This document shows positions 15,243 through 39,079 of a DNA stretch of 64,000 bases, piece by piece. Location of the stretch: the NCBI GenBank assembly GCA_030145055.1, contig JAQYWK010000004.1, positions 324,701 to 388,700 of the forward strand, given 5' to 3'. The notes under the pieces are model-generated. The model saw nothing but the letters and a program-made list of their open reading frames with translations, searched no databases and had not been told where the DNA came from. Numbering within the stretch: the stretch's first letter is position 1; the number at the start of each line of letters is the position of its first letter. The DNA comes from Desulfovibrio sp. (GTDB lineage Bacteria; Desulfobacterota; Desulfovibrionia; Desulfovibrionales; Desulfovibrionaceae). The position numbers and the translations under genes were made by a program.

Positions 15243-15287
15243 TCGGACCTGACTCGGCTAAATTGTGTCCGGCCTTCTTGGTATTCT
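15243..15287 (+). promoter_or_regulatory. Palindromic virion-unit promoter, copy 1
   Basis: The 30-bp element (15243-15272) begins TCGGACCTGA, has spacer CTCGGCTAAA, and its right arm is degenerate (TTGTGTCCGG). The -10-like TATTCT starts exactly 9 bp later (15282-15287). The ATG at 15308 follows 20 bp further on, so the leader is very short. This is the most degenerate of the five copies. Confidence 0.65.
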
Positions 15288-15307
15288 TTGTACATAAGGA
15301 GGAAGAA

Positions 15308-15517
15308 ATGAATGAAAGTTCAACTGTAACACTCGCTGCTCTGTACCCATTGGAGAATAGACGACTGTTAAAAAATTACGGACGTTTTGTAGAGGATAAT
15401 CCAGATTGGCTGGAACTAGGTCTGTGCCTTGGCGATTACAAAAGTAAACGCAACGTGCCGGGGCTGAGTAGTTGGGAGTCTCGAGAGCATCGTGATGGCG
15501 CCGGAGGGATGTCATGA
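15308..15517 (+). CDS. Small phage-type protein, first gene of the packaging operon
   Basis: 69-residue soluble protein, polar, with no family recognised. The start is ATG 15308 with AAGGAGG 5 bp upstream. An in-frame upstream non-ATG start would fall inside the promoter palindrome and is rejected. It overlaps the holin start by 4 bp (ATGA), so translation is coupled. Confidence 0.7.
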   Translation: MNESSTVTLAALYPLENRRLLKNYGRFVEDNPDWLELGLCLGDYKSKRNVPGLSSWESREHRDGAGGMS

Positions 15518-15903
15518 TCGGTTCAATTATTGATATTGGTTCGACCATTATTGATAAAATTTGGCCTGATGCCGGAGAAAGGGAGAAAGCGAAGCTTAGG
15601 CTCGTAGAACTCCAAAGTCGGGGGGAGCTTGTTGAGATTGAGTCTAGGCTGAAAGTTATGCTCGCTGAGATGTCCGGCAACTGGCTTCAGCGATCATGGC
15701 GGCCTATTTTAATGCTTACGATTATCGGCATCGTGGCAAATAATTACCTTTTGTATCCGTACTTGGCTTTGTTCTGGGATGAAGCCCCGATACTTGATTT
15801 GCCTAAACAGCTCTGGTCTCTGATGGAGCTTGGTCTTGGCGGTTATGTGGTTGGTAGAAGTGCGGAAAAAGTAACTAAAGCGTGGAGGGAAAATGGTGGC
15901 TGA
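15514..15903 (+). CDS. 3TM-type holin (GTA_holin_3TM family-like)
   Basis: 129-residue membrane protein. Residues 1-55 form an amphipathic charged helix (PDAGEREKAKLRLVELQSRG is typical of this family). They are followed by WLQRSWRPILMLTIIGIVAN, the hallmark stretch at the first membrane helix, then a second and probably a third hydrophobic segment (ELGLGGYVVGRS). The family (Holin of 3TMs, for gene-transfer release) occurs in phages and in the gene-transfer agent of Rhodobacter. It makes membrane holes for particle release. Here it leads the packaging operon. No recognisable endolysin is in the window. Confidence 0.85.
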   Translation: MIGSIIDIGSTIIDKIWPDAGEREKAKLRLVELQSRGELVEIESRLKVMLAEMSGNWLQRSWRPILMLTIIGIVANNYLLYPYLALFWDEAPILDLPKQLWSLMELGLGGYVVGRSAEKVTKAWRENGG

Positions 15904-16105
15904 AGAAAGAGGCGAATTACAGGATCTGCTGATTCGCATTGATGAACGGGTCAAGTCAATTCAGGAGGATATTTCTGAAATTAACGGAGCTAGGCGGTGT
16001 CACACTCATGCGGAAAAGTTCCGCAACCTTGAACGTACTGTTTGGGGAACCGCAACTATTCTTGTCGGGGTTACGGCCCGGGCTGTTTATGAGGCTTTCA
16101 AATGA
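15893..16105 (+). CDS. Small coiled-coil membrane protein, holin partner
   Basis: 70 residues: a charged N-terminal coiled coil (about 1-45, with one Cys-His pair) and one C-terminal hydrophobic segment (TVWGTATILVGVTARAVYEA). This layout matches XhlA/hemolysin-type holin partners. It overlaps the holin by 11 bp and the next gene by 4 bp, so it belongs to a lysis cassette. GTG 15896 is an alternative start. Confidence 0.7.
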   Translation: MVAEERGELQDLLIRIDERVKSIQEDISEINGARRCHTHAEKFRNLERTVWGTATILVGVTARAVYEAFK

Positions 16106-16326
16106 TTGTTACTGCATTACTTGCCGACACCGCAACATGGTTAGGTGGCTCTTTTGAAGGGCGCAGATGTGATTGTTGTGGACGAACTGATCATCTTGAA
16201 TATTTCAGGATGGAAACTCGTTTTGCCGGAAAAATTGTTTTCCGTGAGGCGCATTTATGCCGCAAGTGCATGAGAAAGGCAGAGGCTGGAGTATATGAAG
16301 CTTTAGGTGAAAAAAGTGTTCATTAA
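16102..16326 (+). CDS. Small zinc-binding phage protein
   Basis: 74 residues with two metal-binding pairs, RRCDCCGRTDH and HLCRKCMRKAE, forming a likely single zinc site. The N-terminus is hydrophobic. It starts at ATGA overlapping the previous stop. No family is recognised; a regulatory or structural role is possible. Confidence 0.6.
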   Translation: MIVTALLADTATWLGGSFEGRRCDCCGRTDHLEYFRMETRFAGKIVFREAHLCRKCMRKAEAGVYEALGEKSVH

Positions 16327-16373
16327 CACGGGGAAAATAACTCAATTCATTCAGAGCTGTGAGGGCGAAATTT

Positions 16374-16664
16374 GTGAGTAAAGAAGTAAGTAAAAGTGGA
16401 GTTGTTAAACGTCAGAAGGAGGAGCTCGAAAGGTTTCGGGAAGTCTTTGCACTTGCTGTGGAATCCAGTGATTCGGATATGGTTAAAGATTTAAAGGCGA
16501 AGCTCGACATTATGCATAAACGGCATGACATGGAGCGGAAAGCTTGGTGCATCGGTGAAGTTAAAAAGGATGCAGCGCCTGCTAAAAAACGTGCAGTCAG
16601 TAAAACAATAAGTCCTGAACTAAGGGAGAAGCTTGATGAAATTTACGGATCTGAGCAGTGCTAA
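16374..16664 (+). CDS. Candidate small terminase or packaging accessory protein
   Basis: 96-residue, mostly helical and highly charged protein (Lys/Glu-rich, with predicted coiled coil over about 10-55 and a basic KKRAVSKTIS linker). It lies directly upstream of, and overlaps by 29 bp, the large terminase gene, the usual place for a small terminase subunit. GTG 16374 is preferred because GAGGG lies 6-10 bp upstream; GTG 16359 lacks a ribosome site. No family match is recognisable, so the terminase call rests on position, size and charge. Confidence 0.5.
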   Translation: MSKEVSKSGVVKRQKEELERFREVFALAVESSDSDMVKDLKAKLDIMHKRHDMERKAWCIGEVKKDAAPAKKRAVSKTISPELREKLDEIYGSEQC

Positions 16665-18177
16665 TAATTGGTATGCCGCCGTGCTTCGTCAAGCGGAGGA
16701 TAAGAAGGAAGTTTTGCAGGTCATGGCTGAACTTGGCCGAAACGATTTGTTCTTTTTGCTGACAAGGCTTCTAGGGCGAGTGGATGCCAATAATGATTGG
16801 GTTTTTGCTAGGTGTCAGGATGTTCAGCGTGACTCAGACGGGCATCTCGATTTGTGGAGTCGTGAACATTATAAATCGACCATTATTACCTTCGCACTGA
16901 CCATTCAGGATATTTTGCGTGACTCAGAAGTTACTGTTGGAATTTTTAGCCACACTAGGCCTATTGCGAAAGGTTTTCTGCGTCAGATCAAAATGGAATT
17001 TGAGCGCAATGAGCTTTTAAAGCAGTGCTATTCCGATGTTTTGTGGGCGAATCCTAAAAAAGATTCACCTAAGTGGTCGGAAGAGGACGGGATAATTGTC
17101 AAACGTAAATCTAATCCTAAGGAAGCTACTGTCGAGGGATGGGGGCTTGTGGATGGACAGCCGACAGGCAAGCATTTTTCAAGATTAATTTATGATGATG
17201 TGGTTACGCGGGACTCTGTTTCAACGCCGGATATGATTTTCAAAACCACTGAGGCGTGGGCCTTATCCATAAATCTAGGAACCCGTGAAGGGGTTAAGAG
17301 GTATGTCGGAACCCGCTATCATTTTAATGATACCTATCGTGATATTTTGAAGCGGCAGGCTGCAATTCCGAGAATTTTTCCGGCAACTGCAGATGGAACT
17401 CTTGAAGGAGATCCTGTTCTGCTTACTAGGGAACAGCTTGAAACTAAAAGGCGTGAAATGGGGCCTTATGTTTTCGGTTGTCAGATGATGCAAGATCCGA
17501 GAGCTGATGATGTTCAAGGATTCAAGGAAGAATGGATCAACCGCTGGGATCAGCATGGCCAGGGCGGCAAGCCTAGGTGGCGTGAATTTAATCGCTATTT
17601 GCTTGTGGACCCCGCTAGCGAAAAAAAGGTCGGAAGTGATTACACGGTAATGCTTGTCATAGGTCTCGGGCCGGACCGGAATTATTACCTGATTGACGGC
17701 ATTAGGGACCGACTAAATCTGACTGAGCGCGCAAGGGCATTATTCAGATTGCACAGAACGTATTCACCGCAAGTTGTTGGTTATGAAAAATACGGCCAAC
17801 AGGCGGATGTTGAGCATATGCAATACGTTATGGGTGAGCAGAATTACAGATTTTCCATCGAACCGATGGGCGGGAATATTCCTAAAACCGACCGCATTCG
17901 AAAGCTTGTTCCTATTTTTGAGCAGGGACGTTTCTGGTTGCCGTGGCGAGGGAGGTTCATGGACCATCAGGGGCGCGAAAGAGATTTGGTGCGGGAATTT
18001 ATTGATGACGAATTTCTCGCATTTCCAGTCGCTCCGCATGACGACATGCTCGATTGCATGGCGCGGATTATGGATCCGGCACTGGGGGCTGTTTTTCCGA
18101 ATCCGCATAGCAGTGTTCAGCAAAACGAATCTATTCAGGGGATTATGGATTACGATATCTTTACGGGAGGGCAATAA
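16636..18177 (+). CDS. terL: Phage terminase large subunit (TerL)
   Basis: 513-residue packaging motor and nuclease, full length for the family. The ATPase domain has a T7-like Walker A region (LWSREHYKST, residues about 73-82) and Walker B LIYDD (about 184-188). The RNase-H-fold nuclease domain has acidic residues at LLVDPA (Asp about 325), GYEKYG (Glu about 384) and APHDDMLD (Asp about 469-470). The start is ATG 16636 with AAGGGAG upstream; an in-frame TTG precedes it. All catalytic motifs are intact, so packaging capacity seems to have been retained. Confidence 0.95.
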   Translation: MKFTDLSSANNWYAAVLRQAEDKKEVLQVMAELGRNDLFFLLTRLLGRVDANNDWVFARCQDVQRDSDGHLDLWSREHYKSTIITFALTIQDILRDSEVTVGIFSHTRPIAKGFLRQIKMEFERNELLKQCYSDVLWANPKKDSPKWSEEDGIIVKRKSNPKEATVEGWGLVDGQPTGKHFSRLIYDDVVTRDSVSTPDMIFKTTEAWALSINLGTREGVKRYVGTRYHFNDTYRDILKRQAAIPRIFPATADGTLEGDPVLLTREQLETKRREMGPYVFGCQMMQDPRADDVQGFKEEWINRWDQHGQGGKPRWREFNRYLLVDPASEKKVGSDYTVMLVIGLGPDRNYYLIDGIRDRLNLTERARALFRLHRTYSPQVVGYEKYGQQADVEHMQYVMGEQNYRFSIEPMGGNIPKTDRIRKLVPIFEQGRFWLPWRGRFMDHQGRERDLVREFIDDEFLAFPVAPHDDMLDCMARIMDPALGAVFPNPHSSVQQNESIQGIMDYDIFTGGQ

Positions 18178-18743
18178 TGTACGGATTTGAGGTGGATGGA
18201 GGCTTTATATTCTACAAATATAGAGATTTGGACGGAACTTTGAGCTTAACGGAGGGCCATTTGAAATGGTTCTGGGATGTAATGTCTCAGGCTGGGCAGA
18301 TTCCGACTATTTTCTATGACGGTTCAGTAGAATGTTTCGAGGAATTTAAAAAACTTGCAAATGATAAAGGACAACATTTTTTCTTTGGTTTTAATGGGAA
18401 TGAGCCTTCGGGGATGTTTTGGATAAATGGTTTGGCTCATCGTTCTTGCTTTGTCCATTTAGCCATAATGCCCGGTTTTTATAGAGAAGGATCTTTGCAG
18501 ATGGGAAAAGGCGTTTTGCGTCATTTGCTGACAGCACGTGACGTCTCTGGTCGGTATATCATGGATTGCATTAAGGGATTGATTCCATCTCGCAATACGC
18601 TTGCGTGTCGAATGGCTGAAAAGTCTGGGTTCGCAAAAATTGGAATTATTCCACAGGCTACATACTTTGCAGCCGAAGATAAAAGTGTGGATGCCGCAAT
18701 TTTTTGTGCGGTTAGAAATAGTCAATATGAGCAGCCTTCGTAA
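18177..18743 (+). CDS. GNAT-like acyltransferase, phage-encoded
   Basis: 188-residue protein with a GNAT-type C-terminal half. FVHLAIMPGFYREGSLQMGK resembles the central strand and P-loop of the fold, followed by helix and strand IKGLIPSRNTLACRMAEKSGF, which carries the typical N..AxxxAEKxGF signature. The start overlaps the terminase stop by 1 bp. Such proteins are common beside terminases in podoviruses but uncharacterised. The Com-like gene four genes downstream raises the possibility of a link to Mom-type DNA modification (Mu Mom is also GNAT-fold), but I see no direct similarity to Mom. Confidence 0.75.
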   Translation: MYGFEVDGGFIFYKYRDLDGTLSLTEGHLKWFWDVMSQAGQIPTIFYDGSVECFEEFKKLANDKGQHFFFGFNGNEPSGMFWINGLAHRSCFVHLAIMPGFYREGSLQMGKGVLRHLLTARDVSGRYIMDCIKGLIPSRNTLACRMAEKSGFAKIGIIPQATYFAAEDKSVDAAIFCAVRNSQYEQPS

Positions 18744-18783
18744 GGTTGCTTGTAAATTTTAAACTTAAAAAAGGAGAATGATC

Positions 18784-19047
18784 ATGGGCGGATCTGGATC
18801 AAAATCACCCTCAGCACCTATAGCCGCGGCTCCGGCACCACCTGTAACAGCAGCACCGGCACCGCCAGTGCTTGATGCTGATTTGCAGCAAAGTGAAGAG
18901 GCTCTAAAGGCCAAGAAAATGCGTGAACTTGATAGGCTTAAAAAAGGCAGGAGTTCGACAGTCCTTACTGGTGGGCAGGGAGTTCTAGGGCAATCTGAGA
19001 CTGATAATGCAACTTTGCTTGGGCAGAAAACCAAGCTCGGACAGTAG
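18784..19047 (+). CDS. Small Pro/Ala-rich phage protein with TVLTG motif
   Basis: 87 residues: a Gly/Ser start, a low-complexity Ala-Pro segment (about 10-32), a charged helix, and the C-terminal motif KGRSSTVLTGGQGVLG. Start ATG 18784 is preferred over 18778 because AGGAG is 7 bp from it. The same motif recurs in the C-terminal part of the next protein. It is a hypothetical protein of the type found just before podovirus portals. Confidence 0.65.
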   Translation: MGGSGSKSPSAPIAAAPAPPVTAAPAPPVLDADLQQSEEALKAKKMRELDRLKKGRSSTVLTGGQGVLGQSETDNATLLGQKTKLGQ

Positions 19048-19058
19048 GGGGGCAGTTT

Positions 19059-19734: not shown

Positions 19735-21405
19735 ATGAATTCGAATAATAAAAACAGGTATGAATCCCGTTTAAAGTCTCTCTTACAGGAGCGAAGTTCT
19801 TGGGAGGGGCATTGGAAGGAAATAAGTGATTATATCCTTCCTCGAAAAGGTCTTTATGCTGGAAGTCAGCCTAACGACGGGCGTAGAAAGGGCAACCGCA
19901 TAATTGATTCAACGGCTACAAGATCATTGCGGATTCTTGCAGCCGGGCTTCAAGGTGGTTTAACTTCTCCGGCTCGTCCGTGGTTCAGGCTTGGCATAGC
20001 TGATCGTGACTTGGCCAAACATAAAAGTGTGCGTGATTGGATTTCAAAAGTTGAAACCGTTATGTACAGAGCTTTGGCGCGGAGTAACTTTTATTCTTGT
20101 ATCCATTCGCTATATACTGAGCTTGCAGGGTTCGGAACTGGTATTTTGTATTGTGAACCGGATGACGAACGTGGAATTAGGTTTCGCACTTTGACTGCCG
20201 GAGAGTATTGTTTGGCAACGGATGCGCAGGGGCGGGTTGATACTGTCTATCGCGAATTTAAAATGACGGCGCGGCAACTTGAAAAAAGGTTCGGAATTGA
20301 TGCGCTTCCGGCAACGGTTCGTACAAGTCTTAAGAGCAATCGAGATCATTGGTTTGATGTTCTTCACGCTGTTCAGCCGCGTGATGAGTTTGATTCCGAC
20401 AAGATAGATAAGCAGAATATGCCGTTTGAGTCTGTGTTTATGCTTAGCGGTAGAGGTAATGAAATCCTTTCTGAAAGCGGATTTATGGAGAATCCGTATA
20501 TGGCTCCGCGCTGGGATACTTCTGCAATGGATGTATATGGGCGCTCACCGGGCATGGATGTGCTGGCTGATGTGAAAATGTTGATGGAGATGAGCAAAAG
20601 TCAGATACAGGCTGTACACCTTACGCTTCGTCCGCCCATGAAGGTTCCGTCCATGTATTCGCGTCGTTTGAATCTTCTTCCCGGTGGGCAGAATCCGGTG
20701 GAGCAGAATCAGCAGGATTCCATTTCTCCGCTTTATCAGGTTAGGCCAGATCTTGGCGGAGTTAGTGCTAAAATTCAGGACGTTAGAACTGCGATTCGTG
20801 AAGGGTTCTATAATGATGTATTCATGATGATGGCTGGGTCGCATCGCAAGATGATTACAGCGGCTGAGGTTGCTGAGCGTCATGAGGAAAAATTGATTCA
20901 GCTCGGGCCTGTTATTGAACGCCAGCATACCGAGCTTCTCGATCCTCTTATTGATCGCGTTTTCGGAATTCTGACTCGTTCGGGGCAATTGCCTGAGCCG
21001 CCGGCTTTTCTTGATGGTGCTGACATCCGTATCGACTATATTTCGATTCTTGCTCAGGCTCAGAAGATGGTCGGCACTCAGTCAATCCAATCTTTATCCG
21101 ATTTTGTGGGCAGGCTTGCAGGAGCAAATCCAGAAGTTTTAGATAAGGTAGATATGGACCGCGCTATTGACGAATACTCGGACTTGATAGGGGTTCCGAT
21201 TGGTATCGTTCGCTCTGATAGCGAAGTTGAAAAGTTCAGGGCGCAGCGGCGGAATATGCAAAATCAGCAAATGAGGATGCAACAAGGGATGGCTGCGGCA
21301 ACCGCGGGAGCTGGAATGATGAAGGACTTGTCACAGGCTGGCCTTAATACCAGTGAAGTTATGGGGATAGCCGGAAAGGCTGAGCAGATTATGAGTTCAA
21401 TGTAA
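19735..21405 (+). CDS. Podovirus portal (head-to-tail connector) protein
   Basis: 556-residue portal of the T7-gp8-like Head-tail_con family. Diagnostic stretches are LLQERSSWEGHWKEISDYIL, IDSTATRSLRILAAGLQGGL, TSPARPWFRL and the C-terminal AAEVAERHEEKLIQLGPVIE. A Gln/Met-rich tail (MQNQQMRMQQGMAAATAG) forms the end. It is full length for the family (about 520-560) with no internal stop. It is the last gene of unit A. The scaffold and capsid genes that normally follow are at 30.8-32.6 kb. Confidence 0.95.
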   Translation: MNSNNKNRYESRLKSLLQERSSWEGHWKEISDYILPRKGLYAGSQPNDGRRKGNRIIDSTATRSLRILAAGLQGGLTSPARPWFRLGIADRDLAKHKSVRDWISKVETVMYRALARSNFYSCIHSLYTELAGFGTGILYCEPDDERGIRFRTLTAGEYCLATDAQGRVDTVYREFKMTARQLEKRFGIDALPATVRTSLKSNRDHWFDVLHAVQPRDEFDSDKIDKQNMPFESVFMLSGRGNEILSESGFMENPYMAPRWDTSAMDVYGRSPGMDVLADVKMLMEMSKSQIQAVHLTLRPPMKVPSMYSRRLNLLPGGQNPVEQNQQDSISPLYQVRPDLGGVSAKIQDVRTAIREGFYNDVFMMMAGSHRKMITAAEVAERHEEKLIQLGPVIERQHTELLDPLIDRVFGILTRSGQLPEPPAFLDGADIRIDYISILAQAQKMVGTQSIQSLSDFVGRLAGANPEVLDKVDMDRAIDEYSDLIGVPIGIVRSDSEVEKFRAQRRNMQNQQMRMQQGMAAATAGAGMMKDLSQAGLNTSEVMGIAGKAEQIMSSM

Positions 21406-21461: not shown

Positions 21462-21728
21462 CGGAGATATTATAAATAGTTCACGGTTTGAGGAGTTGAA
21501 ATTCGTCACGATTAAACATACAATCATTTATGGCTGTATGTGGCTGAGATTGGTTCATAGGTTATAATTTTGTAATTTTATAAAAAGCACAAATTTAATT
21601 TTAATTGCATTAATTCAGATCTCTAATGGTGACATGTTCGGTTAATACCTGTAGGGATAATCGTTATAATGTTGTGGAGCGGTGAGTTACTTTTTAAATG
21701 GAGCCTGAGGGGTTGGGCAGAGGGAATT

Positions 21729-22421
21729 ATGAAGTTGGTGGTTACAGATATAACTCGTTTTAAAGACAACAATGATGTTTGCATGGCTCTGCTTGATGTA
21801 GAAAACTGCACTTGTCATAGACCTTTGCCGTACGCGACTAAGGAACTTGTCGCTCAGAAAGGCATTCGTCCGGGAATGCTTGTCGATGCTACCGTTTTGC
21901 CCATAGAAGACGCAACCCGCCCGCATGTTGAAGATTGCCATATGGTGAATGATTTATGGCTTGAAATGATGGATGACAATTCATTCAAAGATTTACTGGA
22001 ACACACTGCATTTGATTCAGTAAGCGAAGCATTTAATGGAATGATCACACCTAAAAAACGTTGTGCACCGCATGATTGCCCCCCTGAATTTTCCATAAAA
22101 ACCATTAGAGTTGATCCTCTGTCGATGGCTCTTTCCGTAATGGACTGTGGCGAGAAAAAAATCCGATTAAGTTTTCAAGACAAGTCTGGCGAGACATTCC
22201 GACATACCCCTATTGCAGATTTGAATTTTCATTCTTGCGTTTTGAAATATATTCAGCAAGATCGAATGGATGAACTGAATGCTCTTCTTGCCGGCGGCGA
22301 AGACGTCTATATCCGGTTAGGGCTTAGCAGATTGTACAAAGGCAAAAGCGGCAAACAGGGTTACTGGATGCAGGCCAACGGAATCTACTGTTTTCCTGGG
22401 TATTTTTGTTCTACTATGTGA
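21729..22421 (+). CDS. Dual-OB domain protein
   Basis: 230-residue soluble protein. The N-terminal half opens KLVVTDITRF and runs through CTCHRPLPYATKELVAQKGI and RPGMLVDATVLP. The C-terminal half ends VYIRLGLSRLYKGKSGKQGY and WMQANGIYCFP. Both are patterns I associate with a dual OB-fold domain family found in scattered bacteria, likely nucleic-acid binding. ATG 21729 with AGAGGGA upstream is preferred over ATG 21669. It lies immediately after the first phage-type unit and is the first gene of the intervening block; its 3' end abuts the convergent DUF4198-like pair. Its biological role is unknown. Confidence 0.55.
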   Translation: MKLVVTDITRFKDNNDVCMALLDVENCTCHRPLPYATKELVAQKGIRPGMLVDATVLPIEDATRPHVEDCHMVNDLWLEMMDDNSFKDLLEHTAFDSVSEAFNGMITPKKRCAPHDCPPEFSIKTIRVDPLSMALSVMDCGEKKIRLSFQDKSGETFRHTPIADLNFHSCVLKYIQQDRMDELNALLAGGEDVYIRLGLSRLYKGKSGKQGYWMQANGIYCFPGYFCSTM

Positions 22422-30413: not shown

Positions 30414-30458
30414 CCGGACCTGAGTCGGCTGATTCGGGTCCGGGTATTTTTATATTCT
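30414..30458 (+). promoter_or_regulatory. Palindromic virion-unit promoter, copy 2
   Basis: 30-bp element at 30414-30443: CCGGACCTGA, spacer GTCGGCTGAT, TCGGGTCCGG (one G-T pair; the stem extends one more bp). TATTCT at 30453-30458 is exactly 9 bp downstream. It leads unit B, whose first ATG is at 30516. Confidence 0.75.
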
Positions 30459-30515: not shown

Positions 30516-30854
30516 ATGACGATCGAACCCATTTTTTTAGAAGATGAACAATTGGAAGCGGAGAACATCAAAAAAGAACATCGCAGATTAACTGAGCAGT
30601 TTCTGGCTGATGTGAAAACTACTTTTGGTTCTCCACATGGAAAAAGAGTGTTCACCTTTTTACTTGAACAGGGAGGAGTAAACGCAACTCTTTATTCCAA
30701 AGAGTCGGATATTTATCGGAATGTGGCTGTTCATGATTTTGTGGTTGAAAATATTCTTGCGCCAGTTGTTACGGCGGATGAGGGAATCTACCTATCTATT
30801 ATTCGTGAACGTGCTCAAAAATTAAGGGATGAGGAGGAAAAGAGAAATGAGTGA
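30516..30854 (+). CDS. Bbp19-like phage protein
   Basis: 112 residues; the central stretch GKRVFTFLLEQGGVNATLYS then NVAVHDFVVENIL matches the Bbp19-like phage family (Bordetella phage BPP-1 gene neighbourhood). It is charged and helical at both ends. ATG 30516 with CAGGAGG upstream is chosen. It overlaps the scaffold gene by 8 bp. In relatives it sits just before the scaffold and capsid genes, as here; its virion role is not known. Confidence 0.75.
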   Translation: MTIEPIFLEDEQLEAENIKKEHRRLTEQFLADVKTTFGSPHGKRVFTFLLEQGGVNATLYSKESDIYRNVAVHDFVVENILAPVVTADEGIYLSIIRERAQKLRDEEEKRNE

Positions 30855-31536
30855 TTCTATTACACCGGATGAGGCGCAAAATGCAGTAGCAGCAACTGGC
30901 GCTGAGGGCCCGAGCAACGAAGGTCAGAACAGTAAAGATCAGACTAGTGAGAGTGAAGCTTCTTTTGCCGATAACTATGATCCGGCCAAAGCTGGGCGAA
31001 ATTCGCAAGGGGCGAATGTAAATCCTGCCGAGAGATTGGCTAACAGTGAGGCGCAGGGAAAAGGTGAAGCTCAGCCTTCAGTCGATCCTGCTGACTACAA
31101 CATTAATTATGGAGAAGGGGCGAATGTTCAGCCTTATATTGACAAACAGTTCAGAGACTTTGCTAGAGAAAATGGTGTTTCCGGCGAAATGGCTCAAAAG
31201 TTGGTGGATTTTAACAGTCAGCTCGAAGTTGCGAGGGGGCAAGACCAAAAGTTGCAAGCTGGCAAGTGGCGTGAAGAAACAAAGTCTCTCCCTGGTTGGC
31301 AGGGGGCTTCGTACAATAAAAACATGGGTATCGCGAATAATGCGCTTCAGGCTTTTGCGTCTCCTGAACTTGTAAATATGATTGTGGAAGCCGGCTATCA
31401 GAATCATCCCGAAATAATTAAAGCTTTTCACGGCATCGGAGTGAAAATGTCTGAAGATAGCTATGTAAATAACACAGGCCCTACTGGGCGCAAAAAAACA
31501 ATGGGTGAGATTCTTTATCCGAATCAGCCTGTTTAG
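30847..31536 (+). CDS. Capsid assembly (scaffold) protein
   Basis: 229-residue acidic protein. The N-terminal half is low-complexity (Ser, Asn, Glu, Gly, Asp), and the C-terminal half has amphipathic helices (QFRDFARENGVSGEMAQKLV, then LEVARGQDQKLQAGKWREET). This composition and its place just before the capsid gene fit T7-gp9-like scaffolding proteins. ATG 30847 is chosen (GAGGAGG about 9 bp upstream) over ATG 30829. Confidence 0.8.
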   Translation: MSDSITPDEAQNAVAATGAEGPSNEGQNSKDQTSESEASFADNYDPAKAGRNSQGANVNPAERLANSEAQGKGEAQPSVDPADYNINYGEGANVQPYIDKQFRDFARENGVSGEMAQKLVDFNSQLEVARGQDQKLQAGKWREETKSLPGWQGASYNKNMGIANNALQAFASPELVNMIVEAGYQNHPEIIKAFHGIGVKMSEDSYVNNTGPTGRKKTMGEILYPNQPV

Positions 31537-31641: not shown

Positions 31642-32610
31642 ATGGGAACTATTGGTGGAAACGCACTTACTCTTGCAGATTGGTCCAGCCGTCTTGGCGC
31701 TAATGGTGAAGCTACTTCTATTGTTGAAGCTCTTTCACAGACTAACGAAATCCTAGTAGACGCCGCATGGGTCGAGGGTAACCTCCCAACTGGTCACAGA
31801 ACCACTGTCCGTACAGATTTACCAACTGTCAGCTGGCGTAAACTTAACTACGGTATCAAACCTAGTAAGTCTCGTACTAAACAGATTGATGATAGCTGTG
31901 GTATGCTTGAGTCTTATGCTGAAATCGATAAAGCGCTGTCTGATCTCAATGGCGATTCCTCAACTTTCCGTACCTCAGAAGAACGTGCGTTCCTCGAGGC
32001 GATGAATAAGGAATTTGCAGATACATTCGTTTACGGTGATACCGCACTTGAGCCAGAGAAATATTTGGGATTGTCTGCACGTTTCGGCTCCCTTGATCAT
32101 GAGAACGTCGTAAACTTTGGCGGAACTGGCGACAACTGCACATCTATCTGGATCGTTTGCTGGTCTGACCAGACTGTGCATTTCACCTTCCCTAAAGGAA
32201 GCGCTGGCGGCCTTTCTCACAAGGATCTTGGCGAGGTAACTCTCGAAGATACTAACGGTGGTAAATATCAGGGCCTTCGTACCCATTTCAAATGGACTCC
32301 GGGTCTTGTTGTCCGCGACTGGCGTTATGTCATGCGCATTGCTTCCATCGACACCACAAACTTTGGAACAGAATCTCTGCGTCATGCTTTAATTGAAGCT
32401 ATGAACAAGATTCCAAATACCAACATGGGTAAGACCGTAATTTACTGTAACCAGACTGTGAAAACTCAGCTCGATATTGAAGCATCAGACAAGAACAACG
32501 TCATGCTCAAGACTGAAAACTGGGAAGGCAAGCCTGTAACAACATTCTGGGGATGTCCGATTCGCAGAGTTGATTCAATTCTTAACACTGAGTCTGCGGT
32601 AACTGCATAA
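31642..32610 (+). CDS. Major capsid protein
   Basis: 322 residues, soluble, with even composition and no signal. Features typical of podovirus capsid proteins related to BPP-1: an opening ALTLADWSSRLG, then SQTNEILVDAAWVEGNLPTG, the internal RYVMRIASIDTTNFG, and a C-terminal ENWEGKPVTTFWGCPIRRVD. AAGGAG lies 8 bp before the ATG. The fold is inferred to be HK97-like. A 105-bp leader with two small hairpins separates it from the scaffold gene, which may adjust its high expression. It is intact. Confidence 0.9.
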   Translation: MGTIGGNALTLADWSSRLGANGEATSIVEALSQTNEILVDAAWVEGNLPTGHRTTVRTDLPTVSWRKLNYGIKPSKSRTKQIDDSCGMLESYAEIDKALSDLNGDSSTFRTSEERAFLEAMNKEFADTFVYGDTALEPEKYLGLSARFGSLDHENVVNFGGTGDNCTSIWIVCWSDQTVHFTFPKGSAGGLSHKDLGEVTLEDTNGGKYQGLRTHFKWTPGLVVRDWRYVMRIASIDTTNFGTESLRHALIEAMNKIPNTNMGKTVIYCNQTVKTQLDIEASDKNNVMLKTENWEGKPVTTFWGCPIRRVDSILNTESAVTA

Positions 32611-33471: not shown

Positions 33472-33516
33472 CCGGACCTGACTCGGCTGTTTCGGGTCCG
33501 GCTTAACCGCTATCCT
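33472..33516 (+). promoter_or_regulatory. Palindromic virion-unit promoter, copy 3
   Basis: CCGGACCTGA, spacer CTCGGCTGTT, TCGGGTCCGG at 33472-33501 (the stem extends by a G-C pair), with TATCCT exactly 9 bp downstream (33511-33516). It leads unit C. Confidence 0.78.
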
Positions 33517-33600
33517 GAATGTATTAAGCAATGGTTAGTCTCCATTAATATGGAAAAGGTTCGTGTTTTTGGTGACTTCCAGAAAAAACAGAGAGGTTTT

Positions 33601-34230
33601 ATGAATCGTTCAGGTGAAAGTATGGCAGAAGAAAAAAATGGTAAAAATGTGAATTCTGTGTCCGCGCAAGGGGGCATGGGAAAGTCGCGCGAGCCGGAAG
33701 TTGACTCTGAGGGTGGTCCTAATAATGAGTTGAACGCACTGAGAAATGCGGCTACTCGTAGTACTACAGGGCAGGATGGTTTTAAGGGTAAGCCTGATCC
33801 TAAGAAGAACACATATGGAACTTCTCACATAGATGATTACCATAAGCAGGTTAATGATCATCTATTACAGAATGGAACAAAGCCTTCAGATATAGCTTAT
33901 AACTATGAAGGCAAGCCCATTGTTACATATGACGCAATGGGTAACCCTGTGGCAATACCCCCGGGGGACTATGCCGACTCTGTTAAAAAGCTTGGAGATA
34001 TGCATGCAAAGAGAGAGCAAAATAAGGCAGATGGTGTTTTCTCTAAAATGTTTTCAGGAATGAGCGATGCTACCGCCTCAATTGCAGCAGGCCTTGATGG
34101 TGTGGCAGATAAAAGTATTGAAGGCATCGGAAGGCTGTGGTTGAAGGTGGTAAGGCGGCTGGTGAAGCTGTTGGGAAGACTGTTGATGAATTTAAGAATA
34201 ATGAAGAGTTGCAGAAGTATACGGGTATAG
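33601..34230 (+). CDS. Unknown unit-C protein, 5' part (probably frameshifted)
   Basis: Polar, Gly/Asn-rich protein. Residues 1-60 are low complexity, 60-130 look globular (NTYGTSHIDDYHKQVNDHLL, then YEGKPIVTYDAMGNPVAIPP), and an Ala/Ser/Gly stretch follows (SDATASIAAGLDGVADKSIE). After about 34128 the frame becomes a basic Leu/Arg-rich tail unlike the rest (RLVKLLGRLLMNLRI), while the -1 frame continues with an Ala/Gly-rich sequence in the same style. The likeliest reading is one gene, 33601-34577, broken by a one-base change near 34129. ATG 33601 has GAGAGG upstream; other ATGs exist at 33550 and 33622. No family is recognised. Confidence 0.55.
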   Translation: MNRSGESMAEEKNGKNVNSVSAQGGMGKSREPEVDSEGGPNNELNALRNAATRSTTGQDGFKGKPDPKKNTYGTSHIDDYHKQVNDHLLQNGTKPSDIAYNYEGKPIVTYDAMGNPVAIPPGDYADSVKKLGDMHAKREQNKADGVFSKMFSGMSDATASIAAGLDGVADKSIEGIGRLWLKVVRRLVKLLGRLLMNLRIMKSCRSIRV

Positions 34231-34577
34231 CTCTTGGGGCAGGAGGATTGCCTATTGCTATGGCTTCTGGGGTAGCGGTGGCACCTGCCTTAATTCGAAC
34301 AGGGACAGCCGTAAGTGGTATTGTCGAGAATGCAGCTCAAGGAGTAGCCAGTAGAATTGCAACTAGCCCTAGCACAGTAAAAAACCTTAAAAGAGGCTAT
34401 GATTTTGTGTCGGCATTTAACCCCGGAGAACTTCCCCCGGTTAGTTGGGCAGGAGCTCTAGGGACAGCAATTGCTAATAGGGATAGAATTCGTGAAACGG
34501 GTGAAGTTATTCGTAAACAGTTAAAGCCACACTTAGGAGATATTGTACATGAAAGGACTGCTAAGGATAATAGATAG
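34137..34577 (+). CDS. Unknown unit-C protein, 3' part (glycine-rich, membrane-active-like)
   Basis: The frame starting at GTG 34137 encodes 146 residues. It opens with an Ala/Gly/Lys helix (EGGKAAGEAVGKTVDEFKNN), then a hydrophobic Gly/Ala-rich stretch (TGIALGAGGLPIAMASGVAV) long enough to enter a membrane, and a basic C-terminus. It overlaps the 5' part by 94 bp in the -1 frame and has only a weak ribosome site, so it is best read as the displaced C-terminal half of the same protein. A separately translated protein remains possible. It overlaps the next gene by 29 bp. Confidence 0.5.
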   Translation: MVEGGKAAGEAVGKTVDEFKNNEELQKYTGIALGAGGLPIAMASGVAVAPALIRTGTAVSGIVENAAQGVASRIATSPSTVKNLKRGYDFVSAFNPGELPPVSWAGALGTAIANRDRIRETGEVIRKQLKPHLGDIVHERTAKDNR

Positions 34578-34983
34578 AATGTGTGAGTTTTTTGAACAAT
34601 GGGATAAATTAATTAGTAGAGCGATGTACATTGCTACTGGAATTCTCTTTATCCTTTGGAGTATGCCATTTTTGGATTCGGCAGATCCATTCTTTAGAAT
34701 TGCAAGCTTAAATATGATTGCTCGCTGGGGAATGACAGTCTTTGGTTGTATTAGCATTGCGTATGGATTGTTTAAGAAGGATTTTATAAGAGAAAACAGT
34801 CAAGGGATGATATGTCCTCTATGCGAAAAGACCTTTTCTTTCGGTGTCTTACGAATTCTTAAAAGTCTAGTTTGTCCAGAATGCAAAATCGAATTAGAAC
34901 CCCTTGAAGGATTCTATGATCGGTACCCTGAATTAAAAGAACTAGAAGAAGATCTTCCAGATGAGATAGAAGATATTAAGTAA
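34549..34983 (+). CDS. Small membrane protein with zinc ribbon
   Basis: 144 residues: two transmembrane segments (ISRAMYIATGILFILWSMPF and MIARWGMTVFGCISIAYGLF) followed by a cytoplasmic zinc ribbon (ICPLCEKTF and LVCPECKIEL) and an acidic tail. ATG 34549 with AGGAG 9 bp upstream is chosen over TTG 34543. It overlaps the preceding gene by 29 bp, so the two are co-translated. Paired with the glycine-rich, possibly membrane-active protein, it could act as a partner or immunity-type protein, but no family supports this. Confidence 0.65.
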   Translation: MKGLLRIIDRMCEFFEQWDKLISRAMYIATGILFILWSMPFLDSADPFFRIASLNMIARWGMTVFGCISIAYGLFKKDFIRENSQGMICPLCEKTFSFGVLRILKSLVCPECKIELEPLEGFYDRYPELKELEEDLPDEIEDIK

Positions 34984-35020: not shown

Positions 35021-35045
35021 GCCTTTTTCCACATTTTTTCCCAGT

Positions 35046-35090
35046 CCGGACCTGACTCGGCTGTTTCAGGTCCGGCTTGTCGCTTATCCT
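35046..35090 (+). promoter_or_regulatory. Palindromic virion-unit promoter, copy 4
   Basis: Perfect 10-bp arms CCGGACCTGA and TCAGGTCCGG around CTCGGCTGTT (35046-35075). TATCCT starts exactly 9 bp later (35085-35090). It leads unit D. Confidence 0.8.
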
Positions 35091-35146: not shown

Positions 35147-35740
35147 GTGGCAATTTCAGAAGTTAAAATTTGTAATCTGGCTCTTAGAAAACTTGGTGCT
35201 AGGCTTATAGAATCGCTTAGTGACAGCTCTCAGGAGGCTGTTACCTGTAATTTATTTTATGAGCAGGTTCGGGATGCAGTCCTTCGGGATCACCCTTGGA
35301 ATTTCGCAGCACGTCGGGCTAGATTAGCTAAACTTGTCGAGGGTCCAGCTTTTGGTTTTTCATTTCAATATCAGGTCCCAGTTGACTGCTTGCACTTGCG
35401 TCAACTGAATAGCCCTGATGATGAATTTGTAGTGGAAGGCGATAAGATCCTCACCAATTTTGATGGCGCATCAGTCGTTTATACTTGCCGAGTTACTAAT
35501 CCGGTACTCTTTGATTCCTCTTTTATAATGGCCTTATCCGCACGTCTTGCGGCTGAAATGGCTGATGACATTACGGGATCTGCCTCCAGAGCCAGAGAAA
35601 TGTGGACGCTATACCTGAATGCTATGCAGTCAGCCAGATTGGCGGACTCATCTGAAGGGCGCGAGGACGAGGTCTTGAATGATCCTTGGCTCGAAGCCCG
35701 TGGTATTTATGGCGCTGACTCACCTGTGTGGGGGGCATAA
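35147..35740 (+). CDS. Tail tubular protein A (T7 gp11-like)
   Basis: 197 residues. The opening EVKICNLALRKLGARLIESL and the stretch YEQVRDAVLRDHPWNFAARR are diagnostic of podovirus head-tail adaptor/tail tubular protein A. It forms the ring between portal and tail nozzle. The start is GTG 35147 with AAAGGAG 6 bp upstream. It is the first gene of unit D and precedes the nozzle gene by 2 bp. Confidence 0.92.
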   Translation: MAISEVKICNLALRKLGARLIESLSDSSQEAVTCNLFYEQVRDAVLRDHPWNFAARRARLAKLVEGPAFGFSFQYQVPVDCLHLRQLNSPDDEFVVEGDKILTNFDGASVVYTCRVTNPVLFDSSFIMALSARLAAEMADDITGSASRAREMWTLYLNAMQSARLADSSEGREDEVLNDPWLEARGIYGADSPVWGA

Positions 35741-35742
35741 AT

Positions 35743-37836
35743 ATGTCCGTTTCATTAATCATGACCAATTTCAGCGCGGGGGAACTTTCCCCGCGCCTTG
35801 GCGGACGCGTTGACCTTGCGAAATATTCAAACGGGCTTGCTGCTCTGGAAAATATGTACACGCACCCTCACGGCGGTGCATCACGCCGAACTGGATTCCG
35901 CTTTATCCGCGAAGTCCTCGGGCGTGATCTGTTGCGCGAAGGCTGTTTTACCTCTGTAGATGATTGGACCGTTGGAACCGGCTGGTCTGTTTTAAACTCC
36001 GTTGCGCCGTGTAATGGGGCTCAGGCAGGAGAGTCTGTTCTCAGCCGCGATCTGAGTCTCATTGAAGGCAAAACCTATGAAATCGGTTTCACCGTATCTA
36101 GCTTTCAAGCTGGCTCAGTTCATGTTGTTGCAGTTGGATCAGGGGTAAGCGAGTCTGCTACTGTGAACGGGAAATTTATTTCACGCCTTGAAGCCGGAAG
36201 TTCGGGGTCGATTGCAATCATTGCCGATGCAGATTTTATTGGTCAAATAGATTCCATTTCCGTGCGCGAAGTCGGACCTAAAACACGGCTTATTCCTTTT
36301 GAATTCTCAACTGAGCAGGCTTACGTCCTTGAATTTACCGATAAGAATATTCGGATTTATAAGGATGGCGGCATTGTTGTGGATGCGGATGGCGATCCAG
36401 TAGAAGTTCCAACTTTATACCTTGGTAGCGATCTCGAGAAGTTGAGATTCACTCAGTCCGCTGATGTCATGTATCTGGTGCACCCTGAGGTCCAGCCTTA
36501 TAAATTGTCCCGAACCTCTCATGTCGATTGGACTATGAAAATTGTCGAATTTTCCTCGCCTCCTGCCGAGTGGAATAGTGATAAGGGTTACCCTTCCTGT
36601 GTGACTTTTTTCGAGGAGCGTTTGTGCTTTGCTGCAAGCCCCGCCAATCCGCAAACAGTTTGGATGAGCAAAAGCGGTTCATATGAGAACTTCGGCGTTT
36701 CATCCCCTATTGTGGATGATGATGCTTGTACTTATACACTGTCCGCAGATCAGGTTAATGCCATCCGCTGGATGGTCAGTTCCAAGAAACTCATAATGGG
36801 CACCTCAGGCGGTGAATGGTGGCTTTCCGGCGGCGGGAGTGCTGATTCTGTCACGCCCAATTCCGTAATGGTGCGCCGTGAAACAACCCATGGTTCCGCG
36901 TCGATTCCACCTGTTGTTGTCGGCGGGATCATGATTTTCCTTCAGCGTGAGGGCAGAACCATTCGCGAACTGTCTTATTCGTTTGAGGCGGACGGCTATG
37001 TTGCGCCTGATCTAACTATTCTAGCCGAGCACCTTACTAGGTCAAATTCCATAACAGAGTGGGCATACCAGCAGTCACCGGATTCTGTAATTTGGATGAT
37101 TCGTGATGATGGTGTGCTCGTGGGACTTACCTATCAGCGCGAGCATGAAGTGGTCGGATATCATCGTCATGTTACCGAAGGACAGTTCCGCTCTGTCTGC
37201 GTCATCCCCGGAACTAATCAGGAAGAGGTTTGGATTGTTGTCACCCGGGAAGTTGAAGGCGTGAGCCGTAATTATATTGAGCGACTCGAAGAGCAGTTTA
37301 ATGGTGAAGATTCAGTTGAGGCGTTCTATGTGGATTCCGGCCTCAGCTATGAGCAGGATGTTGCAGATACCGTGTTCACAGGACTTGATCATCTTGAAGG
37401 TAAGACAGTCTCAATCTTAGCAGACGGAGCTGTGCGTCCTGAAGTGGTGGTTGAGAACGGGAGCATCACGCTAGCGGCCCCTGCATCAGTGGTGCATGCG
37501 GGGCTTCCTTTTATCTCAAATCTTAAAACTTTGCGTTTGGAAGGCGGCGCAATGGCCGGAACCGCTCAAGGGCGCATGAAACGTATTTCGCATGTAACGG
37601 TAAGGCTTTTCCAGTCTCTAGGACTACAGGTTGGCTACGACGAGGACCATCTGGAACGCGCTCCTTTCCGTACCTCTGCGGATAAAGTCGGGGGCCCTCC
37701 TTCGCTGTTTAGCGGGGATTATGAGGTGAAATTCAACCGTGGATATGATCGCGATGGGCAGATTTATATCAGGCAGGATCAGCCGCTTCCGCTGACCATA
37801 CTTGCGCTTATCCCAGAAGTTACGGTCTATTCATGA
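35743..37836 (+). CDS. Tail tubular protein B / nozzle (T7 gp12-like)
   Basis: 697 residues, mostly beta. The N-terminus MTNFSAGELSPRLGGRVDLA then NMYTHPHGGASRRTGFRFIR is the strong signature of the podovirus tail nozzle/stabilisation family. ATG 35743 is used (a run of G 7 bp upstream); an in-frame GTG lies at 35728. It overlaps the next gene by 4 bp. The protein forms the tail tip through which DNA passes. It has no internal disruption. Confidence 0.92.
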   Translation: MSVSLIMTNFSAGELSPRLGGRVDLAKYSNGLAALENMYTHPHGGASRRTGFRFIREVLGRDLLREGCFTSVDDWTVGTGWSVLNSVAPCNGAQAGESVLSRDLSLIEGKTYEIGFTVSSFQAGSVHVVAVGSGVSESATVNGKFISRLEAGSSGSIAIIADADFIGQIDSISVREVGPKTRLIPFEFSTEQAYVLEFTDKNIRIYKDGGIVVDADGDPVEVPTLYLGSDLEKLRFTQSADVMYLVHPEVQPYKLSRTSHVDWTMKIVEFSSPPAEWNSDKGYPSCVTFFEERLCFAASPANPQTVWMSKSGSYENFGVSSPIVDDDACTYTLSADQVNAIRWMVSSKKLIMGTSGGEWWLSGGGSADSVTPNSVMVRRETTHGSASIPPVVVGGIMIFLQREGRTIRELSYSFEADGYVAPDLTILAEHLTRSNSITEWAYQQSPDSVIWMIRDDGVLVGLTYQREHEVVGYHRHVTEGQFRSVCVIPGTNQEEVWIVVTREVEGVSRNYIERLEEQFNGEDSVEAFYVDSGLSYEQDVADTVFTGLDHLEGKTVSILADGAVRPEVVVENGSITLAAPASVVHAGLPFISNLKTLRLEGGAMAGTAQGRMKRISHVTVRLFQSLGLQVGYDEDHLERAPFRTSADKVGGPPSLFSGDYEVKFNRGYDRDGQIYIRQDQPLPLTILALIPEVTVYS

Positions 37837-38339
37837 GCAAATTAGGCAATACTACAAAGGTGACTTTGAGCGTGCCCACAGCAGAGCATATTGAGCTTGT
37901 TGCTAGCAGGGTTCGGCTGTGCGATCGCGAGGATATGGAAGGTCTAAGGCCGCATACTTCTATCATAGATGTCATTATGGGTGACGTAAAACTGTCGAGG
38001 TTTGTTTATGCGCTTTACCTTGATGGCGTTCCGCACTCCGTTCTGGGAGTGATTCCCGGCCGTATTGATGGGGTGGGTATTCCATGGTTGGTCGGAACTA
38101 CTGATGTTGATGAAAATCCACTGCCATTTGCGAGGATTTCATTGTCAGTACTTGAATTAATGCAAACCGATTTTCCTGTTTTAGAAACATTTGTTTGTGC
38201 ACGAAACAGGAAAAGCACGCTCTGGCATCGTTGGTGTGGGTTTAAGTTTGACCCAGAAAAAATAATGCTTGGGCGTGATTATTATTATCGTGCGAGTCGA
38301 AATATTGGAACAATTAATAAAAAGAGAGAGGGAATATAA
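37833..38339 (+). CDS. Internal virion protein, T7 gp13-like
   Basis: 168 residues with a GNAT-like fold and the layout of phage T7 gp13: ASRVRLCDREDMEGLRPHTS near the start, RFVYALYLDGVPHSVLGVIP in the middle, FVCARNRKSTLWHRWCGFKF at the end. It sits between the nozzle and a gp14-like gene, the T7 order. It has an ATGA overlap with the nozzle gene and a 1-bp overlap with the next. Confidence 0.82.
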   Translation: MSKLGNTTKVTLSVPTAEHIELVASRVRLCDREDMEGLRPHTSIIDVIMGDVKLSRFVYALYLDGVPHSVLGVIPGRIDGVGIPWLVGTTDVDENPLPFARISLSVLELMQTDFPVLETFVCARNRKSTLWHRWCGFKFDPEKIMLGRDYYYRASRNIGTINKKREGI

Positions 38340-39016
38340 TGGCAACAGGGGCAATGTTAGCAGTTGGTTCAATGGCAGTTTCAGTGGTTGGCGGGGCAAT
38401 GAGCAGTGGTGGCGGAGGTGGTGCGGGGGCTGCCGTTCAGGCCGCTGGCTCCGCTATGGGGAGTGCAAGTGGGGGGGGCGGGTTTAATGTCAGCTCTGGA
38501 ATCGGCATGATGACCGATTTCGGCAAGTCTGTTTTTAGCAGTGGAAATGATCAGAGTGAAGCTGCATATAACTCACAAGTGTCAGATTTGCGAAGCATGA
38601 ATAAATTGCAGGGCGGGGTCTATAATCGCGATACCAGCTACAAAGAGGCTCAGCTTGTGCGGCAGGATGCGGATATTAAGTTGGCTGCTTTGCGCAGAGA
38701 ATTATACCGTAGAGAACACTCTCTCGGCGGATACAAAGGAGTCCGTTTGGATTCCGGCTCTATTGTGGATGTTAAGGAAGATACAATCCGTCAGGCAAAT
38801 CATGATGCTGAAATTGTAAAATATCAGGCTGATATTGCGGCAGGCAGGTATGAATCCCAAGGAGATATGTCTTTATGGTCGACAGCAACTAGTCTTGCTC
38901 TCGATAAAATAGATTCTGATCACGATAGTGAAAAGGAGGCGGATAGTCGAACCAGTTCCCTCGTTGATAAGGCTGAAAGCAATCTAACCAGTCTGGTCAG
39001 TTTGGCTGCTGAGTAA
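38339..39016 (+). CDS. Internal virion protein, T7 gp14-like
   Basis: 225 residues. A hydrophobic, extremely Gly/Ala/Ser-rich N-terminal third (MLAVGSMAVSVVGGAMSSGG and further repeats) is followed by a helical charged remainder (AQLVRQDADIKLAALRRELY). This matches the ejection protein gp14 family, which inserts in the outer membrane during infection. It is the last gene of unit D; the large gp15/gp16-type ejection proteins that usually follow are absent here. There is no strong terminator before the next promoter at 39035. Confidence 0.78.
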   Translation: MATGAMLAVGSMAVSVVGGAMSSGGGGGAGAAVQAAGSAMGSASGGGGFNVSSGIGMMTDFGKSVFSSGNDQSEAAYNSQVSDLRSMNKLQGGVYNRDTSYKEAQLVRQDADIKLAALRRELYRREHSLGGYKGVRLDSGSIVDVKEDTIRQANHDAEIVKYQADIAAGRYESQGDMSLWSTATSLALDKIDSDHDSEKEADSRTSSLVDKAESNLTSLVSLAAE

Positions 39017-39034
39017 ATTTATATTTTTTGTCGC

Positions 39035-39079
39035 CCGGACCTGACTCGGCTGTTTCAGGTCCGCTTTACGAAGTAACTT
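39035..39079 (+). promoter_or_regulatory. Palindromic virion-unit promoter, copy 5
   Basis: CCGGACCTGA, spacer CTCGGCTGTT, TCAGGTCCGC at 39035-39064 (the last pair is lost). The -10-like box TAACTT is at 39074-39079, again exactly 9 bp downstream. It leads the tail-fibre unit E. Confidence 0.72.

What the first reader, a model, noticed from the sequence alone, without database searches (positions are those of the whole stretch)
15243..39079. Five virion units start with the same 30-bp palindrome at a fixed distance from a -10 box
CCGGACCTGA-N10-TCAGGTCCGG occurs at 15243, 30414, 33472, 35046 and 39035, always at the 5' end of a virion unit. In all five a TATyCT-like hexamer (TATTCT, TATTCT, TATCCT, TATCCT, TAACTT) begins exactly 9 bp after the palindrome. 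Taking that as the -10 box, the palindrome is centred near -36.5, overlapping the -35 region, as for a class II activator or a repressor operator. The middle (CTCGGCTGTT) is also conserved. The copies span 24 kb and flank host genes. This would be a private regulon for particle production, driven by one dimeric regulator not encoded here.
Basis: partly seen in the sequence, partly recalled or inferred. Interest (0 to 1): 0.87.

Follow-up and report, generated by a model that had tools for sequence, protein, structure and literature searches.

The report
Shared switch for phage-like particles, toxins
In a marine sulfate-reducing bacterium the same DNA switch sits in front of tame, virus-derived particle genes and in front of toxin-immunity genes scattered round the chromosome, which suggests that particle and toxins are made together.

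Summary
The palindromes are real and far above chance. They belong to one promoter element of a genome-wide regulon that is larger than proposed. This genome has 17 copies, 5 in the window and 12 elsewhere. All 17 head a virion or a toxin-like unit; 16 have a -10-like TAnnnT exactly 9 bp downstream. Five lead units of a podovirus-like particle, twelve lead polymorphic toxin cassettes, mostly short RHS toxins. The copy at 33472 leads a (frameshifted) toxin cassette, not a virion unit. The element is found in 16 of 16 same-genus genomes; in 23 other genomes hits equal the control. In three single-contig genomes the units lie 0.18-1.8 Mb apart, so the particle is gene-transfer-agent-like rather than a prophage. 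Five satellite-like islands carry the same element. The half-sites lie two helical turns apart, as for 186 CII, and a conserved CII-like gene (17 of 17 genomes) is a candidate regulator, unproven. Against a pure protein operator: in half the genus the repeat covaries like a hairpin. Against functional co-regulation: some promoter regions are plainly copies of one another. Delivery of the toxins by the particle is inference.

The parts
15243..15272 (+). operator dyad, unit 1 (lysis/terminase/portal); right arm degenerate
15282..15287 (+). -10-like TATTCT, 9 bp after the dyad
15514..15903 (+). holin (phrog_3427)
   Evidence: E 1.5e-32
16359..16664 (+). small protein before terL, possible small terminase; no PHROG match
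   Evidence: position only
16633..18177 (+). terminase large subunit (phrog_38)
   Evidence: E 1.1e-53
19735..21405 (+). portal/head-tail adaptor (phrog_332)
   Evidence: E 1.2e-171
30414..30443 (+). operator dyad, unit 2 (scaffold/capsid); also scores as a terminator-like hairpin
30453..30458 (+). -10-like TATTCT
30829..31536 (+). scaffold-position head protein (phrog_458, 'protease')
   Evidence: E 2.3e-32; no Pfam match
31642..32610 (+). major capsid protein (phrog_212)
   Evidence: E 1.4e-78; homologues
33472..33501 (+). operator dyad, toxin cassette inside the virion locus
33511..33516 (+). -10-like TATCCT
33550..34577 (+). toxin-like gene, broken by a frameshift (ORFs 33550-34230 and 34137-34577); an intact relative exists in the genome; no Pfam match for the first ORF
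34543..34983 (+). immunity-like small protein; a look-alike stands beside another toxin (by eye)
35046..35075 (+). operator dyad, unit 3 (tail tube), exact match to the pattern
35085..35090 (+). -10-like TATCCT
35147..35740 (+). tail tubular protein A (phrog_394)
   Evidence: E 4.7e-55
35728..37836 (+). tail tubular protein B (phrog_376)
   Evidence: E 1.4e-212
37833..39016 (+). two internal virion proteins (phrog_308; phrog_418 weak, E 3e-05)
39035..39064 (+). operator dyad, unit 4 (tail fibre)
39074..39079 (+). -10-like TAACTT
39131..42394 (+). tail fibre/spike (phrog_13893 N-terminus)
   Evidence: E 4.8e-15

Best explanation
Each dyad is the operator of a sigma-70-type promoter: 8-bp half-sites CGGACCTG/CAGGTCCG, 20 bp centre to centre (about -46.5 and -26.5), flank a -35-like stretch (column consensus CTGAYT), with a TATyCT-like -10. 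One trans-acting dimeric regulator, not encoded in the window, switches on together (a) the dispersed units of a domesticated podovirus-like particle and (b) a variable set of polymorphic toxin-immunity cassettes. Shown by computation: the element, its spacing, its target genes, its conservation in the genus. Inferred: that a protein binds it; that this is an activator, perhaps a 186-CII-like (Phage_CP76) protein; that the particle is gene-transfer-agent (GTA)-like and not self-transmitting; and that the toxins leave the cell with it, inside it or by the same lysis.
For: 17 copies in this genome at 0-1 mismatches to the core (up to 3 mismatches 40 hits against 7 in the control; 12 hits, control 0); 17 of 17 lead virion (5) or toxin-like (12) units, 16 of 17 have the -10. 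16 of 16 same-genus genomes have it; in 23 others 16 hits against 15 control hits. Spacing 68 of 78. Of 158 distinct sites 79 lead virion units (one G010 fibre gene counted twice), 62 toxin-like genes, 5 islands; 3 sit at contig ends, 3 are weak matches, 6 have no such gene. Of 44 toxin-side ORFs extracted I aligned 29 long ones: 29 of 29 have Rhs_assc_core, partly by choice; tips include Ntox44, Tlde1, PPPDE. Tips and downstream ORFs go together: 43 pairs share both, 9 tip only, 11 ORF only, 343 neither, permutation p 0.0005. Ejection-type protein: 41 viral fold matches at E<=1e-3, TM 0.2-0.5. Unit distances. 186 CII binds half-sites two turns apart at -38/-58 and contacts sigma and alpha (PMC6593788, passages). 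A full-length CP76 protein occurs in 17 of 17 genus genomes, 87-98% identical in the 6.
Against: Binding, transcription start and regulator are untested. In clade B (73 sites) the repeat covaries beyond shuffles, with A.C more depleted than G.T, as for an RNA hairpin; clade A, the window's, shows little. CTGAYT is exact in only 43 of 145 sites. 5 of 28 assessable large RHS genes in 8 genomes lack the dyad. G015 keeps tail and fibre genes without a recognisable dyad. Upstream flanks of the tail-tube site, the ejection-type site and one toxin site are 82-93% alike, so promoter regions have been copied. The CII-like candidate also occurs in G173, which has a capsid gene but no dyad; related HTH proteins are widespread (61 of 109 genomes); its sigma-54-like promoter is missing in G000 itself. 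The half-sites sit about one turn nearer the promoter than those of 186 CII. No signal shared by toxins and virion proteins was found beyond one 16-residue start.
Confidence: 0.7

Rival explanations
1. The inverted repeat works as a hairpin (RNA terminator or insulator against read-through, or DNA cruciform) and the promoter lies beside it; no dedicated dimeric regulator reads it.
For: Clade B covariation: outer pairs 1-3 and inner pair 10/19 exceed 500 of 500 shuffles, outer 5 and inner 12/17 all but 3; Watson-Crick 578 observed against 484 expected of 803 cells, A.C 34 against 61, G.T 83 against 99; T-runs after 29 of 73 clade B sites; 30414 scores as a terminator.
Against: Clade A: Watson-Crick 372 against 365 of 792, conserved mismatches inside, T-runs in 8 of 72, though outer pairs 1 and 9 exceed all but 14 and 2 of 500 shuffles; a fixed distance to a -10 is not needed for a terminator; the genes served are one functional class.
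Confidence: 0.2
2. The dyad is an operator for a repressor that silences the particle and toxin genes, not for an activator.
For: It covers the -35 region; in three islands a TATAAT or TACAAT follows it, one bp closer, and in one of them a CI-like repressor gene stands beside it.
Against: The commonest virion and toxin -10s are TATCCT and TATTCT, away from the consensus, as in activator-dependent promoters; half-sites flank rather than cover the -10.
Confidence: 0.3
3. Toxin genes share the element only because toxin loci and virion 5' ends are copies of one another; co-regulation has no function.
For: Leaders of the ejection-type gene and of the toxin at C1:235910 are near-identical down to the first 16 codons; upstream flanks are alike between these two and the tail-tube site (82-93%) and within two RHS groups (57-75%).
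Against: The other flanks in this genome are not alike; toxins with different N-termini, and islands, keep dyad and spacing; kept across the genus.
Confidence: 0.17
4. The dyad is a packaging or recombination site that favours packaging or shuffling of these loci.
For: Palindromic, dispersed, next to mobile toxin cassettes and islands.
Against: Directional, at the 5' end of units, with a -10 at one spacing.
Confidence: 0.05

Closest known systems
RcGTA/CcGTA regulons (GafA; GafY in Caulobacter)
   Same: one activator serves dispersed GTA genes; GafY is reported to bind about 20 sites and to contact RpoD (PMC11150451, passages)
   Different: GafY's site lies far upstream with IHF; no toxin set is mentioned in the passages seen; particle kinship not compared here
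Desulfovibrio desulfuricans Dd1 GTA
   Same: same family of bacteria; capsid relatives (about 40% identity) in 19 genomes of one other genus, by inference the genus of the D. piger and D. desulfuricans records
   Different: whether Dd1 is this gene family was not tested; no repeated dyad in the 29 loci scanned
186-type CII (Phage_CP76)
   Same: inverted half-sites two turns apart at a CII-dependent promoter
   Different: half-sites at -46.5/-26.5 here against -58/-38; regulator not shown
MuF polymorphic toxins of temperate phages (PMC5576092)
   Same: phage structural context plus polymorphic toxins, hypothesised to be loaded in the head (passages)
   Different: toxins here are RHS or other types at scattered chromosomal loci, not MuF fusions
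P4-like satellites and PICIs (recalled)
   Same: primase, own terminase, integrase, no capsid gene found; possible use of a helper's regulation
   Different: the apparent helper is a GTA-like regulon, not a phage

Membership tests
Gene transfer agent | phage structural genes without replication or integration genes in the cluster | tested here: met
   for 20 ORFs of the units; the rest of the window read by eye
Gene transfer agent | cannot package its own full gene set | tested here: met
   units 0.18-1.8 Mb apart in G001, G004, G016; rests on the remote protein being a needed virion part
Gene transfer agent | vertical inheritance with the host | tested here: inconclusive
   capsid gene in 16 of 16 relatives, bioF in the same fetched stretch in 13 of 16; no tree was made
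Gene transfer agent | particles carry and transfer host DNA | not testable with these tools
   needs particles
RHS polymorphic toxins | RHS/YD core with the conserved core end | tested here: met
   29 of 29 aligned, 29 chosen from 44; the window's own cassette has no such match
RHS polymorphic toxins | variable toxin tips with cognate immunity gene | tested here: met
   by sequence only and with relatedness not removed; activity not tested
186-CII-regulated promoter | inverted half-sites about 20 bp centre to centre | tested here: met
   matrix
186-CII-regulated promoter | half-sites centred at -38 and -58 | tested here: not met
   -26.5 and -46.5 if TATyCT is the -10
186-CII-regulated promoter | bound by a CP76 protein | not testable with these tools
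   candidate only
Phage satellite (for the islands) | integrase, replication and packaging genes, no capsid genes | tested here: inconclusive
   primase in 5 of 5, large terminase in 4, integrase in 3; no capsid, portal or tail family among the 30 island proteins scanned; ends not mapped, not every ORF scanned
Phage satellite (for the islands) | mobilised by a helper | not testable with these tools
   shared operator only
MuF toxins | MuF N-terminal domain | tested here: not met
   1 of 29 with a weak hit, E 0.0052

The most novel reading that the evidence does not exclude
A gene-transfer-agent-like particle has been turned into a kin-discrimination weapon: one phage-CII-like master switch co-produces capsids, lysis and a rotating set of RHS toxins that are delivered with the particle, recipients being protected by chromosomal immunity genes; and small satellites have adopted the same operator to ride these particles.
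Probability: 0.3. Interest if true: 0.93.

Novelty: new variant of a known kind. Interest (0 to 1): 0.82.

Why it matters
GTAs are usually seen as DNA-sharing devices. A regulon that unites such a particle with a polymorphic toxin set would tie DNA transfer to selective killing and make the question of why hosts keep GTAs testable. It offers a 28-bp genomic signature that finds members of the regulon, including toxins that homology alone would not link to virions, and a possible case of satellites living on a GTA.

Tried and rejected
Regulator beside a dyad: none recurs genus-wide; the HTH genes next to the dyad in the islands are alike in L351 and L356 but not in L353 and L355. Repeated dyad in Desulfovibrio-type virion clusters: none in 29 loci (the first version was swamped by runs of N). 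N-terminal toxin domain in virion proteins: no match. Ejection-type protein in phage records: none by tblastn; no solved fold below E 0.5. Candidate regulator against solved structures: nothing convincing, best E 0.12. Candidate as predictor of the dyad outside the genus: failed; that G173's portal runs straight into its head genes is my reading by eye. Simple promoter scan: 14 found, 13.6 expected. Papers (open-access library; partial listings, e.g. 20 of 70, 20 of 200 shown): I saw no title or abstract start joining GTAs with RHS/polymorphic toxins or GTAs with satellites that use them. Two listed papers hold both 'gene transfer agent' and 'polymorphic toxin' (PMC12846349, PMC11654794); their passages do not join the two. 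Passages only were read of PMC11841831, PMC9662315 (reference list only), PMC12724379, PMC11409702, PMC6593788, PMC7708051, PMC11150451, PMC11434368, PMC5576092. The model of an RHS toxin (pLDDT 68.5) has a helical N-terminus, a low-confidence linker, a beta shell and a low-confidence tip; not searched further.

Counts with drops: the 158 sites leave out copies identical over 88 bp to one already counted (at least the G006 capsid-unit site seen). Ten genomes' sites came from a pattern that included TAT at the -10 with 3 mismatches allowed, so only the 78 sites of the other seven genomes were used for the spacing test. Orientation was chosen by the better -10; 31 unclassed sites were re-read on both strands. 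Two large RHS genes at contig ends of G000 were left out of the 28; RHS genes were matched to dyads by hand from coordinates.
Full report
Observation. One is exact, three have one mismatch, 15243 has four. The window is G000:C5:324701-388700 of a 3.9-Mb genome in 7 contigs.

The whole genome. A search with up to 3 mismatches gives 12 copies, control 0. The core CGGACCTGAvTCGGCTnnnTy gives 17 places at 0-1 mismatches (at up to 3 mismatches 40 hits, many of them the reverse strand of the same dyads, control 7), read with flanks. In 16 of 17 a TAnnnT begins 9 bp after the 30-mer (9 TATCCT, 5 TATTCT, 1 TATTAT, 1 TAACTT); the exception, C1:295066, lacks that stretch and heads a truncated toxin gene. 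Of the 12 copies outside the window one heads a 569-aa protein and eleven head toxin-like genes, some broken. With 33472 that makes 5 virion and 12 toxin units. Some promoter regions are copies: upstream flanks of the tail-tube, ejection-type and C1:235910 toxin sites are 82-93% alike, those of 295066 and C4:518702 75%.

What the units encode. Virion genes are podovirus-like: holin, terminase, portal, scaffold-position protein, capsid, tail tubes A and B, internal virion proteins, fibre; tail tube B is closest to Pelagibacter podoviruses, at up to 49% identity. The remote 569-aa protein is all-helical (pLDDT 75), has no solved relative, but 41 viral fold matches at E<=1e-3 with TM 0.2-0.5, among them an internal virion protein B and transglycosylase- or peptidase-bearing proteins, many unnamed: probably an ejection-type protein. 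Its first 16 residues and its leader are shared with the toxin gene beside it, which may be duplication or a sorting signal; no signal common to all toxins was found.

Toxins. From 44 extracted ORFs 29 long ones were aligned: conserved N-terminus and YD core, variable tips; 29 of 29 match Rhs_assc_core and TEN_YD-shell at E<=0.01; tips include PPPDE (3), Ntox44 (2), Tlde1 (1), YkuD (1). Among 29 toxins with a downstream ORF, 43 pairs share tip and ORF, 9 tip only, 11 ORF only, 343 neither (permutation p 0.0005; relatedness not removed). In 8 genomes 23 of 28 assessable large RHS genes have the dyad (matched by hand).

Conservation. The core is found in 16 of 16 same-genus genomes; in 23 other genomes 16 hits stand against 15 control hits. 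158 distinct sites were read in 17 genomes: 79 virion, 62 toxin-like, 5 island, 3 contig ends, 3 weak, 6 without such a gene. In 78 sites found without a -10, TAnnnT lies at the one offset in 68. Positions 15-20 of the 28-mer have the column consensus CTGAYT, 18 bp from the -10, exact in 43 of 145 sites. Sites stand before holin/terminase in 16 of 17 genomes, scaffold/capsid in 17 (G006), tail tube in 15, fibre in 15, ejection-type gene in 16 (the last in G002 and G013 by hand). G015 is poor in sites: its tail and fibre genes have none recognisable; in G002 tail and fibre were not settled. In three single-contig genomes terminase and capsid units lie 177-1045 kb apart and the ejection-type unit 1.4-1.8 Mb from both (coordinates). 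Such a set cannot travel as one packaged piece; hence GTA-like.

Geometry and regulator. Half-sites CGGACCTG and CAGGTCCG are 20 bp apart centre to centre. 186 CII is reported to bind an inverted repeat two turns apart at -38/-58 and to touch alpha and sigma. Here the half-sites would be at -46.5/-26.5. Phage_CP76 members occur in 17 of 17 genomes, several in each; one full-length group of about 161 aa is present once in each, beside a dapF-like gene (name recalled) in the four loci whose ORFs I listed. A sigma-54-like GG-N10-GC lies 65-69 bp before it in 14 of 17 genomes, not in G000, G006 or G012 (background 3.9% of 160-mers from the same loci). Short HTH-only members also recur in the genus and are other candidates. 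Outside the genus a 57% relative in G173 goes with a capsid gene and no dyad. So this is a candidate, which I put at about one in three.

Hairpin question. Clade B (73 sites) shows pairing covariation beyond 500 of 500 shuffles in outer pairs 1-3 and inner pair 10/19, and A.C is more depleted than G.T. Clade A (72 sites), the window's, shows little. Related sequences inflate such counts, and template switching can perfect palindromes (recalled), but a hairpin role beside the operator remains open.

Islands. In five genomes the dyad stands before an operon with a D5-type primase (5 of 5), a CII-like Phage_CP76 gene (L351, L355, L356; shortened in L352, not seen in L353), and small and GpA-type large terminase (L351, L352, L355, L356); integrases were found in L353, L355 and L356. 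No capsid, portal or tail family matched among the 30 island proteins scanned with PHROGs. In L351 and L356 TATAAT, in L355 TACAAT, follows the dyad one bp closer than in virion units. The large terminase differs from that of the particle (phrog_15 against phrog_38). L354 holds a dyad but none of these genes.

Verdict. Real and larger than described: an operator-defined regulon joining a domesticated particle to a toxin set. As stated 0.70; particle-borne delivery and satellites remain inference.

Noticed in passing
L351, L352, L353, L355, L356 (G014, G015, G013, G016, G008): Satellite-like islands (primase in all five, own terminase in four, integrase found in three) carry the same dyad; L354 has a dyad with no island genes, perhaps a scar.
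   Followed up: partly
L348-L349 (G016 C1:1542605-1567506): The capsid gene is split by an about 25-kb insertion with genes that look like type I restriction genes (by eye).
   Followed up: partly
L110, L120 (G010, G004): A dyad with changed arms (complementary in G004) lies just past the end of a response-regulator-like gene in two genomes; it may be a terminator.
   Followed up: no
G000 C1:89134, C4:60148, C1:605324 and others: Short RHS core ends follow toxin genes, like silent replacement tips.
   Followed up: no
L359-L375: The CII-like gene has a sigma-54-like promoter in 14 of 17 genomes.
   Followed up: partly
window 42778-45312: Biotin-type genes bioF, bioG, bioC (names recalled) follow the fibre gene; bioF lies in the fetched stretch of 13 of 16 relatives.
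   Followed up: partly
window 21669-22421: Gene after the portal with a weak dual-OB match, role unknown.
   Followed up: no
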